NCBI RefSeq assembly: GCF_029632765.1
Contig: NZ_CP121247.1
Coordinates: 248,001-312,000, forward strand
Origin: Arcanobacterium wilhelmae
GTDB lineage: Bacteria > Actinomycetota > Actinomycetes > Actinomycetales > Actinomycetaceae
Direction of reading: 5' to 3'
Length of the DNA stretch: 64,000 nucleotides
The position numbers were made by a program, and so were the translations under genes. Shown here in pieces: positions 2 through 5,933 of the stretch. A model generated the notes under the pieces. It was not told where the DNA came from, made no database searches, and was given only the letters and a program-made list of their open reading frames with translations. Position 1 is the first letter of the stretch, and each line of letters begins with the position of its first letter.

Positions 2-2845
2 TTCCGGCTCGTGCCGCCCACCGAGCTTGAGGATTATCTCGCACAAGTGTGTGCGAACGAGGGGATCGAGGCGCCGCGCGAGGTGCTCAGCCTGGCCGTG
101 CGCGCCGGAACTGGCTCCGTGCGCGACACCATGTCCGTCCTCGACCAGCTCATCGGCGGCTCTGTTGGCGGCCGGCTTGATTATGAGCGCGCAGTGGCGC
201 TGCTCGGCTACACGTCGGCGGCGCTGTTGGACGACGCCGTCGCCGCAATCTCCGCCCGCGACGGCGCTGGGCTTTTCGGCGTCGTCGATTCCGTGGTCAA
301 GAGCGGGCACGATCCGCGCCGGTTCGTGGAAGATCTGCTTCAGCGCCTGCGCGATCTGATGATCATCGCGCTCACCGGCGAGGCCGCCCGCGATGTGTTT
401 GTGGCGGTTCCCGATGATCAATACTCGCGCATGGTCCAGCAGGCGATGGCTCTCGGCGCCGGGCGCGCCTCGCGCAGTGCGGATTTGACCAACGAGGCGC
501 TCTCCCAGATGGTGGGCGCCACCGCGCCCAGGCTCCAGCTCGAACTGCTCTGTGCACGGCTGATCGTGGATGAAGGGCCTGCCGCGCCACACGACGCCGG
601 TGCTTCCGCTGGCGCGAGTGCCGCGGCTGGCGCTGGCATGGGTGGTGGCCATGGGCGAGCCGTGCCGCCTCCCGCTGATCTTGCGCGCTTGAAGAAGCCA
701 AGCCCACAGGAAGCTGCCCGTGCCGCCGCGCATCCTGAGGCTGCGCGCGGGGGAGCGCAAGGTCAAGGCGCGCCGCAGGCGGCCGGAGCGCAGGCGGCTG
801 GCGCTGGCCAGGCGCCGATGGTTGGCATGCCACAGGAAACCCCACGCGAAGGCGGCCCTCAGGCTGAAGCGCCCCAACGCAAGATGTCGAATGTTGCGCC
901 CCAGAACCGTGCGATGCCAGCAATGCCGGGTATGAGCGAGCAGCCTGCTGCCGGTACTCAGGCGCAGCCGCAACTCCGCGAGCACACCATACCTCAGCCG
1001 CAAACCGAGTCGAAGCCCACTCCGGTACCTGCCAAAGGCGCAGCGCCGGCGTCGGGAGAGCAAGGGCAGGCGCAAGCTCAAGAAGTGCCTGAGGGGCGGC
1101 AGGAGCCGCGACAAGTTGAACCACAACAGCAGCCGGGCACGCCGGCGGGAGCCGGGGCACCGGCGTCGGCGGAACAGCGCGCTGATATGCCGTCGGGGGA
1201 GCGTCCTGCAGGCAAGCCAGCCGTAGATCCGAACCGGGCGCTCGCGGCCGTGCGAGGGCGCTGGGTAGACGTACTCGAGGCAGTGAAGGAATCATCGAAG
1301 GTTGCGGGCTCGCAACTCGTCGCCTCCGCAGGGCCGATCGCCTTCGAAAACGGCACCCTCGTGATCGGGTTCGAACAGCCGGGCCTCGCGAACGCCTTCG
1401 GGCGTCACACGGGCGAAGTGAGTGACGCGATCGGGCGTGTGTTTGGCAAGCCGCTCCCCGTTGAGGCGCGAGTCGGAGGCGAAGGCGCAGGTAGCGCGGG
1501 TGGGCGTCCGCAGCCGAGCGGCCCGCAGGGCGGTGGCTCGCAAGGTGAGCGTCCGGCGCCGGGAGGGCCGCGCCCAAAAGCTGAGGCCGCGCAGGCCGCG
1601 GCCCCCGCAACTGAAACCACAAACGACCACGAGGATGCACAGCGCGCCACTACCGCACCCGCGTCGGGAGCGGTCACTGGCAGTGCCGAAAAGGAACCAG
1701 CGGCTCGAAAGTCCGGGGACAACGAAACCGGCGTGGCTGTTGCCGTGGGGGAGAGCGCTGGCCAGATGTCCGCCGTCGCGGGCGGTGCGGAGGCGGAACA
1801 TACGGCCCACGAACTGCCGCTAGCAACGTCGGCCGCGGAACACAATCGTGGAAACACACAGCCAGGCGTGCTCGGCGAGCCGAACGACGGGCTCGACGAG
1901 CCCGTCCACCCCGAAGACGATCCCGTCTACCACCAAGACCCATCCAAGGAACCCGAAGCCCAGGCGCTTGCTGACCCGGCCGGCGTCCTCGCCGGACTGT
2001 TGGACGGAAGCGTGCAATTCGCTGGAGAGGATCACACGCGTGAAACCCGGCCGATGGGAATGAGCGGTCAGGGTACTCCGGCGCGGTCGGCACAGCCGCC
2101 CGAGCCCACCCTCGACGTCCCCGTTCACGCGGATCCGGTCCACGAGCAGGAGCCCGTCCCCGGCTACGAATACATTCCGCCCGAATTCGAGCCAGCGCCA
2201 GAGGAAGAGTTCGAGCCCTACAACCCCGCGATGTACGAGCGCGGGGAGTCGGCTGGGAGGGCGGCAGGTGCCGGCTTGGGTGCGGCCGGTGGGTCTGCGC
2301 GTTCGGAATCGCCGGACGCAGGTGCGGGTGCGAATGCGGCCCAACCGCCAGCGCCCACCGCGGGGGACGCGATTGGCTCGGCGAACGAAACCCCGTTCTA
2401 CGCCCAGAATATGCCAGCCCCGCCGCCGCTCACCATGCCCGGCCGCGAGCAATCGGCCGCGAGCCCGGCCAACCAGCCCACGGCCGAGAACCATGTACCG
2501 ATGTCGGGCGGTGTAGACGCTACCGGAGCGGCCGCGTCGGCATCGCCAGGGGTGGCTGAGGCACCGGCGTCGAGCGGGACGGATGATTTCCTCGCCAACG
2601 CGGCGCGGATGCTCGGGCGCGCGCCGGAACACACCTCGTCGCATATGCGGGGCGGCACGATCGACGCGAGCAAGCTCGCCGCCGCGCACCAAAACGACCC
2701 CGCGCCGGAGGAAACCGACGGCTGGGACGAAGTCTCTGAAGACGATCCGGAAGTGTCCGTGGCCGACAACGCCGGCGTCAACATTCTCGTCGAGCAACTC
2801 GGCGCGCAAATCGTTGAAGAAATCCCGATGGAAGAAGGGCGCTAA
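2..2845 (+). CDS. dnaX: DNA polymerase III subunit gamma/tau, 5'-truncated
   Basis: Clamp-loader ATPase subunit of the replicative polymerase. The frame is open from the first bases of the window, so the start and the P-loop region lie upstream. What is seen begins within the AAA+ module: a sensor/lid region with [14 protein letters not shown], then the helical clamp-loader domain to about residue 190. A very long Ala/Pro/Gly/Gln/Glu-rich linker follows. It is interrupted near 1225-1480 by a folded segment ([14 protein letters not shown]...) typical of the tau C-terminal part. The last residues ([20 protein letters not shown]) form a conserved-looking tail. The visible part alone is about 947 residues, longer than most DnaX proteins, because of the linker. 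The stop TAA overlaps the recR ATG by one base, which suggests translational coupling. Identity is secure from the residual domain plus recR. Confidence 0.93.
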
Positions 2846-3468
2846 TGGCCGGAGTCTACGACGGCGCAGTACAACAACTCATCGACGAACTCGGGCGACT
2901 GCCCGGCGTCGGGCCGAAAAGCGCCCAGCGCATCGCCTTCTACCTGCTCGAAGTGGAGGCTACCGAGGTGGACGCCCTGGTTGCCGCGCTACAAGCCGTG
3001 AAAACCAAAGTGCGCTTCTGCTCCATCTGCGGCAACGTCACCGAAAACGAGATCTGCTCCATCTGCGCGGACCCGCGCCGGCTGGACTCAGTGATCTGCG
3101 TGGTCGAAGAAGCCAAAGACATCGTCGCGATCGAACGCGCCCGCGAATACCGCGGCCGATACCACGTGCTCGGCGGCGCGATTGATCCGATCGCGGGCGT
3201 CGGGCCAGATCAGCTGCGCATCCGGGAGCTATATGCGCGGCTCGGGGGCGGTGAGGTGAAGGAAGTGATCCTCGCGATGGATCCGAACGTCGAAGGCGAA
3301 GCCACCGCCACGTACCTCTCGCTGAATCTCGCGCACATGGGAGTGATCGTCTCGCGCCTCGCCTCCGGACTGCCAGTGGGCGGCGATCTCGAATACGCCG
3401 ACGAAATCACTATCTCGCGCGCCCTCGAAGGCCGCACCCGCATCAGCGAGCCGGCTACAGGGGCGTAA
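2845..3468 (+). CDS. recR: Recombination mediator RecR
   Basis: RecR works with RecO (and RecF) to load RecA onto SSB-coated single-stranded DNA during gap repair. The 207 residues are normal for the family. Order seen: an N-terminal helix-hairpin-helix ([20 protein letters not shown]), a four-cysteine zinc finger ([16 protein letters not shown]) near residues 57-72, then a TOPRIM domain with [12 protein letters not shown] and [15 protein letters not shown]. The ATG overlaps the dnaX stop (TAATG), the common bacterial dnaX-recR pair. Nothing is missing or odd. Confidence 0.97.
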
Positions 3469-3576
3469 CCATCCGCGGGAGCGCCTACCCGCCGGCGTCG
3501 GGAGCTACTTCGGGCGAAAACCAGAGGCCACACGCGAGCCTGTGCGGGCGCGAGCCGGCCCACCGGCGTCGGTGAC

Positions 3577-3681
3577 CGGACGTGTAAAGAAAAGTGGAAA
3601 AGTTTTACACGTCGGTGGGGACGTGTAAAAAAATCACCGAATTTTTTACACGTTTGGTGGATGTGTAAAAAATCTTTACAC
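3577..3681. repeat. Fic-flanking direct repeat, left copy (GTGTAAA palindrome array)
   Basis: This 105-bp element holds three inverted-repeat units: ACGTGTAAA/TTTACACGT arms at 3580-3588 and 3604-3612, again at 3621-3629 and 3645-3653, and GTGTAAA/TTTACAC at 3663-3669 and 3675-3681. The arm spacings are 15, 15 and 5 bases. It ends 5 bases beyond the fic stop codon. The right copy (4796-4901) has the same orientation and differs by three substitutions and one extra A. The half-site array looks like a set of protein-binding sites. It could also terminate fic transcription. Confidence 0.9.
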
Positions 3682-3686
3682 GATCC

Positions 3687-4772
3687 TTAGCGAGGCAACG
3701 GAGTATGGAACAGAAGCTCCAGGTATGGGCGGTTGGTGAACACAACAGCTCGCCCCTCACGTGACCGCTCCAAAACGCCAAGTGTTTCAAGTTCCGCGGC
3801 CCACTTCGTCGCCGTTGGGCGGCTGACCGAGCCCGAGGTCATCAGATCGTCGTAACGCAAATAGGGCTTCTCGAAAAGCACATGTGCGAGATCACGCGCC
3901 GGCATCGACGTTGCGCGCAACTCGGCAATGACGTTGTCCAACATGTCTCGGATTGTCTTCACCAAGGAAGTGAGCCAATCTGAAGTGACTGTGACCGCGT
4001 TCAAAATGAACAGGATCCACTCCTCCCATGCGCCGTCTTGCGTCACGCCGTTCAAGAGCCGGTAATACTCATCCTTATGCTCCACGATGTATCCCGACAG
4101 GTACAGCACTGGAAGGTCGAGCAGCTGCTCGTTCACGAGGTAGAGCACGTTCAAGATACGCCCAGTGCGCCCGTTTCCGTCGGGGAATGGATGAATTGCC
4201 TCGAACTGGTAGTGGAGCATCGCTAGTTTGACAAGAGGGTCGAAATCCCTGTTTTCATGCAGGAACTTCTCCCACGCATTGAGATGCCCGCTAATCACAT
4301 CCTTACCTTCCGGAGGCGTGTAGATGCGCCTGTGGGAAATTGGATTGCCGATAAAAGTTCCCGTGCCCGAGCGAAGATCCGTCTCGATGCCGCGAATCGA
4401 TGTGCACACCGTTTTTGCAGTGTTGATGCTTAGCGGGCGGCGGCGGATCGCCTCGAGACCGTCGTAAAGAGCGGTGCGATATCGTAGAGCCTCGCGGGTT
4501 GCGGGCGTAGTTGGGCCAACCTCGGAAGCTGCACGGAAGAGCTCGTCGTTGGTTGTCACGATGTTCTCAATCTCGCTCGATGCCTGTGCCTCGAGGAGTG
4601 GAATCGCGTGGATCAGAATCGAAGGATTTGGAAGCATTTGCGAGGTCGCATTCGCTTGCGCAAGTGCGCGTGCTGCAGCGATCGTTGCGCGCGATAGGCG
4701 TAATGAATGGAGCTCCTTCGCCGGAGGAAGCGCAGGGAGATTCTGGTAAGGCTGGTTAACGTCGATCGGCAT
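3687..4772 (-). CDS. Fic family protein with N-terminal inhibitory motif and C-terminal winged helix
   Basis: Fic enzymes move AMP (sometimes another nucleotide group) from a nucleotide onto a hydroxyl side chain of a target protein. The 361 residues show an N-terminal region with a class II-type inhibitory motif, SSEIEN at residues 65-70, fitting (S/T)xxxE(G/N). The complete catalytic motif HPFPDGNGRTGR lies at 194-205. A C-terminal winged-helix-like segment (DDLMTSGSVSRPTATKWAAEL) spans about 310-345. The gene therefore appears to encode an intact, self-inhibited AMPylator with its own DNA-binding-like domain. No antitoxin gene adjoins it. It sits alone between recR and pdxS and is bracketed by direct repeats; the right copy covers its promoter region 24 bases before the ATG. 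Autoregulation through these repeats is inference. The composition looks more AT-rich than the neighbours, consistent with acquisition. Confidence 0.92.
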   Translation of the reverse strand: MPIDVNQPYQNLPALPPAKELHSLRLSRATIAAARALAQANATSQMLPNPSILIHAIPLLEAQASSEIENIVTTNDELFRAASEVGPTTPATREALRYRTALYDGLEAIRRRPLSINTAKTVCTSIRGIETDLRSGTGTFIGNPISHRRIYTPPEGKDVISGHLNAWEKFLHENRDFDPLVKLAMLHYQFEAIHPFPDGNGRTGRILNVLYLVNEQLLDLPVLYLSGYIVEHKDEYYRLLNGVTQDGAWEEWILFILNAVTVTSDWLTSLVKTIRDMLDNVIAELRATSMPARDLAHVLFEKPYLRYDDLMTSGSVSRPTATKWAAELETLGVLERSREGRAVVFTNRPYLELLFHTPLPR

Positions 4773-4795
4773 GTGTGAATCGTAGCGGAGAAGGT

Positions 4796-4901
4796 CGGAC
4801 GTGTAAAGAAAAGTGGAAAATTTTTACACGTCGGCGGGGACGTGTAAAAAAAATCGCCGAATTTTTTACACGTTTGGTGGATGTGTAAAAAATCTTTACA
4901 C
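4796..4901. repeat. Fic-flanking direct repeat, right copy, over the fic promoter region
   Basis: This 106-bp element is a near-identical direct copy of 3577-3681. It has the same three GTGTAAA/TTTACAC palindromes; the first arms are at 4799-4807 and 4823-4831. It lies immediately upstream of the fic start codon at 4772 on the minus strand, so it occupies the place expected for promoter and operator. The two copies enclose the whole gene and nothing else. Confidence 0.9.
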
Positions 4902-5057
4902 ATCCAGGGCGGCCGCTGCCGCGTTTCTAGCCGGTGCGCGAGTCCTAGGCGCACTCGCGTATAGTTTTGTGCGGAAAACAAAGCGCAGCGCTATTGGAAC
5001 GCAACTAGCCCACCGGCGTCGGCGCAACCAGATCTACCTCACAAGCGAGGCAATCCA

Positions 5058-5929
<872 letters not shown>

Positions 5930-5933
<4 letters not shown>

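What the first reader, a model, noticed from the sequence alone, without database searches (positions are those of the whole stretch)
3577..4901. Fic gene bracketed by two direct copies of a 105-bp GTGTAAA palindrome array
A single self-inhibited Fic AMP-transferase (motifs SSEIEN and HPFPDGNGRTGR intact, C-terminal winged-helix-like region) is enclosed, to within 5 bases at the stop and 24 at the start, by near-identical direct repeats. Each repeat has three GTGTAAA/TTTACAC palindromes with spacings 15, 15 and 5. One copy occupies the promoter, the other the 3' end. Two readings are possible: an autoregulated toxin-like gene whose product or partner binds both ends and loops the DNA, or a cassette that moves or excises by recombination between the repeats.
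Basis: partly seen in the sequence, partly recalled or inferred. Interest (0 to 1): 0.8.

Follow-up and report, generated by a model that had tools for sequence, protein, structure and literature searches.

The report
SoFic-type gene between two operator arrays
A one-gene bacterial antiviral toxin appears to read short DNA words through its own tail domain, and here and in many other bacteria the block of words in its promoter is repeated behind the gene, which probably keeps the gene under its own control and may let it be lost cleanly, leaving one empty block behind.

Summary
In detail: a minus-strand SoFic-type fic gene (3687-4772) lies between two 96%-identical direct arrays, U at the promoter (4796-4905) and D at the 3' end (3577-3686). 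Among 105 distinct relatives, matched RTGTnnn/nnnACAY pairs spaced exactly 5 or 15 occur upstream in 66 and downstream in 26; 18 have both, always sharing an nnn word. One residue of Fic's own winged-helix domain (319) tracks nnn: proline with TGTAAA in 12 of 12 loci, and in none of the other 61 typed. So the arrays are very probably Fic's operators. U abuts a leaderless promoter (30 of 38). D lacks a -10 (17 of 19), yet its half-sites are conserved. Excision has partial support: of 200 family genomes, 10 hold a solo array and no fic at E<=1e-50, and in one genome a single array joins the outer flanks of two arrays of a relative. No solo array was seen near pdxS in 7 genus relatives. Binding, AMPylation and D's role are inferred. 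Fic autorepression is known (CccR); the operator code, bracketing and solo arrays were not found in the papers searched.

The parts
3687..4772 (-). fic gene, 361 aa, SoFic-type (Fic_N, Fic, SoFic-like_C)
4796..4905 (.). array U: six GTGTAAA half-sites in three inverted pairs (spacers, read from the ATG, 15, 16, 5), promoter side
3577..3686 (.). array D: six GTGTAAA half-sites in three inverted pairs (spacers 15, 15, 5), directly behind the stop codon; direct repeat of U
4779..4807 (-). predicted leaderless promoter: TTTACA (-35, inside the last half-site of U) - 17 nt - TACGAT (-10)
   Evidence: consensus match only
3729..3899 (-). codons of the SoFic-like_C (winged-helix) domain, residues 292-348
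3816..3818 (-). codon of Pro319, the residue that tracks the half-site word
4158..4193 (-). codons of HPFPDGNGRTGR (Fic catalytic motif, residues 194-205)
   Evidence: motif role recalled
4563..4580 (-). codons of SSEIEN (N-terminal inhibitory motif, residues 65-70)
   Evidence: motif role recalled
2845..3468 (+). recR, convergent neighbour beyond array D
5058..5933 (+). pdxS (SOR/SNZ), divergent neighbour beyond array U

Best explanation
The gene is a SoFic-type, N-terminally self-inhibited Fic adenylyltransferase. Each GTGTAAA is a half-site read by the recognition helix of its own C-terminal winged-helix domain. As a dimer it binds inverted pairs spaced 5 or 15 (one DNA turn apart). Bound to U it covers the -35 region of its leaderless promoter and represses itself. 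D is a second binding array of the same specificity without a promoter: it adds binding sites (insulation, titration or looping) and, as a direct repeat, lets the gene be lost by homologous recombination, leaving one array. Shown by sequence: arrays, spacing rule, position over the promoter, recognition code, D conservation, solo arrays. Inferred: binding, repression, dimer geometry on DNA, AMPylation, anti-phage role, any benefit of D, and how the deletion happens.
For: Spacing rule: 104 of 115 upstream pairs and 37 of 40 downstream pairs have spacer 5 or 15 out of 30 allowed; six control windows (184 kb) hold 4 pairs, 2 of them 5 or 15. Same word on both sides in 18 of 18 loci; 0 of 20,000 shuffles reach this, best 13. 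Residue 319 has the highest mutual information with the word of all columns; Pro separates TGTAAA loci from the rest in 73 of 73, next best column 94.5%; V only with TGTTCA (5), I only with TGTATA (3). Of 20 further loci two have Pro319 and both have TGTAAA-N15-TTTACA, one as TTGTAAA. Promoter: TANNNT starting at -14..-10 in 30 of 38 loci, shuffles mean 3.9, max 9. D half-sites: 13 of 555 positions differ between U and D against 130 of 1245 other aligned positions. D has a -10 in 2 of 19, U in 33 of 60. Solo arrays. Precedent: CccR autorepression (PMC9755527, passages).
Against: No binding or expression data. The code is not one-to-one: Gln319 goes with CGA, ACN and TAA words. On the tree there are only 4 independent changes to TGTAAA; all 4 go with Pro, but the sign test cannot reach significance (p 0.125). 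31 of 105 loci show no exact pair on either side, 48 only upstream, so D is not needed for a SoFic gene. Two-sidedness changes at least 14 times on the tree. The U/D comparison treats positions as independent, and half-sites were partly defined by their conservation. No structure model was obtained.
Confidence: 0.8

Rival explanations
1. The array-fic-array unit is a mobile cassette moved by a dedicated recombinase or transposase that uses the arrays as its sites, much as integron cassettes or trans-mobilised elements do.
For: Patchy distribution: 27 of 200 family genomes, 4 of 9 genus genomes, with the loci read standing in different places (window, G006, G007). The shared U/D segment ends near the array edge in many loci. 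In genus g12 arrays also stand beside other toxin genes. On some plasmids fic overlaps a resolvase gene.
Against: No recombinase beside fic in the window. No target duplication that stands out (the 15-nt GCCCACCGGCGTCGG at 3558 and 5008 shares a core with 23 sites in the window). In G006 the insertion is several kb, not one gene. The arrays are positioned as operators at the promoter. No circular form was searchable.
Confidence: 0.15
2. D is a relic: a tandem duplication of [array + fic], or an older fic unit, lost its second gene, and the left-over array is decaying and without function.
For: D is missing in most loci. In L102 and L108 the repeat reaches well beyond the array on its 5' side (250 and 156 bp). 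The two copies are always direct.
Against: D half-sites differ from U less than other positions do (13/555 against 130/1245). No second fic-like piece was found in the 119 loci except a broken single gene, L124. In most two-sided loci the repeat does not reach the start codon.
Confidence: 0.25
3. The two arrays are joined by a DNA loop through Fic dimers or higher oligomers, giving tighter repression or blocking transcription from neighbours.
For: Same word and spacing on both sides. D has operators but seldom a -10. SoFic is a dimer in crystals (PMC12249575, part 1 and passages; PMC10628234, passages).
Against: Looping does not explain why every informative pair is direct, as the sites themselves are palindromic. 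48 of 105 loci have pairs only upstream. No tetramer evidence was seen.
Confidence: 0.3
4. The arrays are a genome-wide repeat family (REP- or MITE-like) that happens to flank fic.
For: They are palindromic and occur as solo copies in 10 of 200 family genomes.
Against: Only two copies in the own genome. 16 of the 26 genomes with array-like sites carry fic beside them. The word tracks the Fic recognition helix.
Confidence: 0.03

Closest known systems
SoFic one-gene anti-phage system (PADLOC SoFic; PDB 3eqx, 3zcn; EcSofic, PMC12249575)
   Same: Full-length similarity over the catalytic and C-terminal domains (PADLOC E 8e-105; PDB chains E 1e-100 to 1e-102); class II Fic with N-terminal inhibitory motif.
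   Different: The passages seen describe no operator for SoFic, and PMC10628234 says that SoFic DNA binding had not been shown. E. coli has the 47-aa AS1 gene behind fic, where the window has array D. The window protein scores 424 bits against the NCBIfam equivalog cut-off of 550.
CccR of Yersinia pseudotuberculosis (PMC9755527, passages)
   Same: Fic enzyme with a C-terminal DNA-binding domain that represses its own promoter through an inverted repeat and needs its dimer to do so.
   Different: One inverted repeat AGATAATCAT-N26-ATGATAATCT at the promoter; the passages seen mention no second array behind the gene; half-site and spacing differ; a secreted T6SS effector.
CbFic2 of Coxiella burnetii (PMC10628234, passages)
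   Same: Class II Fic with a C-terminal winged helix; DNA binding raises its AMPylation activity.
   Different: Random DNA was used there; no specific site was reported in the passages seen.
Solo LTRs, and integron cassettes with attC sites (recalled)
   Same: A unit between two direct repeats whose recombination leaves one repeat behind (works like).
   Different: No integrase, no attC core and no target duplication seen; the arrays look like operators first. No membership is claimed.

Membership tests
SoFic (class II Fic) | Fic_N, Fic and SoFic-like_C domains above Pfam gathering scores | tested here: met
   79.2, 58.5 and 42.2 bits against 26.7, 24 and 27
SoFic (class II Fic) | PADLOC SoFic profile over the full length | tested here: met
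   E 7.7e-105, residues 10-354
SoFic (class II Fic) | NCBIfam SoFic equivalog cut-off (NF046030, 550 bits) | tested here: not met
   424.2 bits, so it is called SoFic-type here, not a SoFic equivalog
SoFic (class II Fic) | Intact N-terminal inhibitory motif and Fic catalytic motif | tested here: met
   SSEIEN and HPFPDGNGRTGR (motif definitions recalled)
SoFic (class II Fic) | AMPylation and phage defence | not testable with these tools
   bench assay needed
CccR-like autorepressor | Inverted repeats overlapping the own promoter, read by the own C-terminal domain | tested here: met
   by sequence only:
CccR-like autorepressor | Repression and DNA binding measured | not testable with these tools
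   bench assay needed
CccR-like autorepressor | Operator as in CccR (one pair, N26 spacer) | tested here: not met
   spacers 5 and 15, several pairs; works like CccR, not filed as CccR
Site-specific mobile cassette | Recombinase or transposase encoded in the unit | tested here: not met
   fic is the only annotated-size gene between the arrays
Site-specific mobile cassette | Empty site with one repeat at the orthologous place | tested here: inconclusive
   window locus: none seen; lysA locus of g12: single arrays, one with outer flanks of two arrays joined

The most novel reading that the evidence does not exclude
The SoFic arrays are both operator and recombination junction. Modules of a defence or toxin neighbourhood sit between direct arrays; Fic holds its own gene silent through them; recombination between arrays swaps or drops modules and leaves solo arrays. 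Because the toxin also reads the arrays, loss of the array DNA, as by a phage that degrades the chromosome, could free Fic and act as the trigger.
Probability: 0.2. Interest if true: 0.88.

Novelty: new variant of a known kind. Interest (0 to 1): 0.7.

Why it matters
It gives a directly testable answer to how a self-toxic one-gene defence system is kept silent: SoFic would be its own repressor, with operators that can be read from sequence and a one-residue recognition code. DNA binding by SoFic was called undemonstrated in 2023 (PMC10628234, passage). The arrays also give a sequence handle for finding lost SoFic genes (solo arrays) and for asking how defence genes turn over.

Tried and rejected
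Looked for known RNA families at the arrays: no Rfam match in 3000-5200 at E<=1. Terminator reading of D: no terminator-like site at D; the two listed lie at 3525-3547 and match the shuffle rate. The arrays fold well as RNA (z about -8), as any palindrome would. Virus link: 7 stretches matched patterns in viral contigs, none encodes a relative; one phage record at 38% identity. Repeats in L077 and L088 are not arrays; in L087 and L017 the best 500-bp alignment is another repeat. The empty-site test for G006 gave an island of several kb rather than a single-gene insertion; the G007 flanking gene was found in no other genus genome. Flanks of the six TGTCGA solo loci and of L153 (G080) gave no convincing shared locus with a fic-bearing relative (L191 and L214 gave weak translated hits that I judged unspecific). 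Pattern hits without the usual arrangement: 21 of the 33 genomes are neither fic-linked nor counted as solo; I looked at 7 of these loci, and they look like GC-rich chance or coding matches. The backward control pattern matched 6 genomes there and 1. Quality of the six TGTCGA solo arrays: one perfect N5 companion (L192), one mismatch or one odd end base in three (L191, L204, L214), a second N15 pair in L195, a degraded companion in L203. Structure prediction was asked five times and never ran.

Rows dropped: 14 of 119 loci with identical protein cores before the counts; L092, L124 and L137 before the protein alignment, which leaves 73 of 74 typed loci. Of the 22 loci given to the U/D tally, two (L055, L072) gave no array alignment; 'other' positions include flank beyond the arrays in L102 and L108. 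In one search, 83 of the loci then held were tested. A note gave the control as 7 genomes; the table shows 6. A note wrote 'no P in any non-AAA locus'; that refers to the 73 typed loci.

Full report
What is there. The fic gene runs 4772 to 3687 on the minus strand between recR and pdxS. Array U (4796-4905) is upstream and array D (3577-3686) directly behind the stop; both hold six GTGTAAA half-sites in three inverted pairs. They are direct repeats, 95.5% identical over 111 aligned columns. 12 of 13 GTGTAAA in the window lie in them. Full-length copies occur nowhere else in the own genome.

What the gene is. Pfam gives Fic_N, Fic and SoFic-like_C, PADLOC gives SoFic at E 7.7e-105, and the best solved relatives are SoFic chains. 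The NCBIfam equivalog cut-off is not reached (424 against 550 bits), so I call it SoFic-type. SoFic is reported as a toxic one-gene anti-phage system (PMC12249575, part 1 of 4 and passages). In E. coli a 47-aa antitoxin gene AS1 lies behind fic; in E. coli locus L180 a 47-aa GTG ORF starts at the last base of the stop, which I take to be AS1. In the window array D occupies that place.

The arrays belong to the gene family. I gathered 119 loci: 80 from genome contigs, 26 from the family, 12 from the class and the window; 105 have distinct protein cores. I counted exact pairs RTGTnnn...nnnACAY with spacers 1-30. Within 300 bp upstream 104 of 115 pairs have spacer 5 or 15 (66 loci); within 300 bp downstream 37 of 40 (26 loci). 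Six control windows of the same loci, 184 kb together, hold 4 pairs, 2 of them with spacer 5 or 15. 18 loci have pairs on both sides, 48 only upstream, 8 only downstream, 31 on neither. The word nnn differs by lineage: CGA, AAA, TCA, ACN, TAA, ATA and others. Both sides share a word in 18 of 18 loci (0 of 20,000 shuffles).

The protein reads the word. In 73 typed loci, residue 319, next to an arginine that is invariant in the 29-row alignment and in the stretch SRPTA of the window, has the highest mutual information with the first two bases of nnn of all columns. Pro319 occurs in the 12 TGTAAA loci and nowhere else; Val only with TGTTCA (5 of 5); Ile only with TGTATA (3 of 3); Gln covers CGA (35 of 37) but also ACN, TAA and single others. 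Four remote loci with TGTAAA (L064, L112, L123, L136) also have Pro. On a quick tree of the catalytic part there are 4 changes to or from TGTAAA and 4 of Pro; 4 of 4 independent pairs go together, too few for significance (p 0.125). In 20 further loci, Pro319 occurs twice: a Sphingobium plasmid with GTGTAAA-N15-TTTACAT, and a Hymenobacter plasmid with TTGTAAA-N15-TTTACAA (read by eye). Of the 16 with Gln, 11 have a pair with TGTCGA on at least one side, 2 have other words (L171, L228) and 3 none by that scan. That residue 319 lies in the recognition helix is inferred from the sequence pattern; the structure model could not be run.

U is an operator over a promoter. In 38 loci with an N15 pair at -62 to -48, a TANNNT starts at -14 to -10 in 30 (27 of them at -12); shuffled tails give 3.9 on average, at most 9. 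The last half-site then falls in the -35 region of a leaderless promoter. In the window these are TTTACA (4807-4802) and TACGAT (4784-4779) before the ATG at 4772. Measured from the last N15 pair, a -10 follows in 33 of 60 U and 2 of 19 D. In the window D lies between convergent genes, so it is not a promoter for either.

D is constrained and direct. Over the 20 of 22 loci with an array alignment, U and D differ at 13 of 555 half-site positions and 130 of 1245 others; positions are not fully independent, and half-sites were defined with up to one mismatch. The direct score exceeds the inverted score in all 20. The shared segment usually ends about 20-27 bases before the ATG, at the edge of the array; exceptions are L117 (reaches the ATG), L038, L042, L025, L090 and L019. 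In L102 and L108 it extends further upstream; L117 has three copies. The two-sided state changes 14 times on the tree, so it is gained and lost readily.

Solo arrays. In 200 family genomes RTGTAAA-N15-TTTACAY occurs in 14 (backward control 1): 10 beside fic, 4 (G019, G074, G080, G107) without it. RTGTCGA-N15-TCGACAY occurs in 33 (backward control 6): 6 beside fic, 6 solo with a companion pair or second pair at 30 or 40 bases (G096, G100, G112, G174, G194, G196; quality varies, see Tried and rejected), 21 others taken as chance. None of the ten is among the 27 genomes with a fic match at E<=1e-50, and none has a fic remnant within 1.5 kb by tblastn. More distant Fic genes in them are not excluded.

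The lysA locus of genus g12 (6 genomes; Pfam names, other names from reading translations). G051: RelB-ParE-type pair, U, fic, D, lysA, with a degenerate array before the pair. G074: an AbiEii-type gene and one array whose left flank matches the degenerate array of G051 and whose right flank matches D. G019: RelB-ParE-type pair, one array, lysA. G107: ParE-type gene, one array, lysA. G118: RelB-ParE-type pair and a short N5 piece. G091: no array. The G074 junction is what recombination between two direct arrays would give; the reverse, insertion at an array, would look the same. G019 and G107 lack a further 776 bp next to lysA, so they are not simple excision products of the G051 arrangement.

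The window locus. pdxS was found in 7 other genus genomes; none has an array pair within 1.5 kb, and in G002 recR and pdxS are neighbours without an array. So the unit came here with both arrays, or the arrays were lost elsewhere without trace.

Known and new. Fic autorepression through an inverted repeat is known for CccR (PMC9755527, passages). For SoFic, PMC10628234 (2023, passages) states that DNA binding had not been demonstrated. My literature searches (an open-licence library only) listed no paper whose shown text describes the operator, the code, the bracketing or solo arrays. Five papers were opened: four by passages only, PMC12249575 also by part 1.

Noticed in passing
L178, L172-L176 (lysA locus, genus g12): A hot spot before lysA holds different toxin or defence-like genes in each genome (RelB/ParE, ParE alone, AbiEii, fic), with arrays at several junctions.
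   Followed up: partly
L117:907-1465: Three direct arrays around fic and a 94-aa ORF (1032-1316, minus) with no Pfam match lying between the second and third array.
   Followed up: partly
L170:2501-4521, L225:1495-3530, L227:1486-3473: On three alphaproteobacterial plasmids fic overlaps a recombinase gene (Resolvase domain checked in L170) beside repC.
   Followed up: partly
L180 upstream of 3423; L229 upstream of 1480: Enterobacterial relatives have a long upstream ladder mixing ATGTCGA and ATGTTTA half-sites and no array behind fic in the loci seen.
   Followed up: no
L179:3441-5741: E. coli S10: fic annotated as frameshifted, followed by a second Fic family gene beside a MobH relaxase.
   Followed up: no
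L017, about -302 to -190 before fic and +257 to +370 behind it: A second, unrelated 114-bp direct repeat (91%) lies outside the two arrays of the Mobiluncus locus.
   Followed up: no
L016 / L099: A record titled Tissierella sp. is 100% identical over 4 kb to a genome that the tool places in the window's own family; the title is probably a misnomer.
   Followed up: no
window 3558-3572 and 5008-5022: A 15-nt GCCCACCGGCGTCGG stands on both sides of the unit, but its 10-nt core occurs 23 times in the window (both strands), so it is probably chance.
   Followed up: yes
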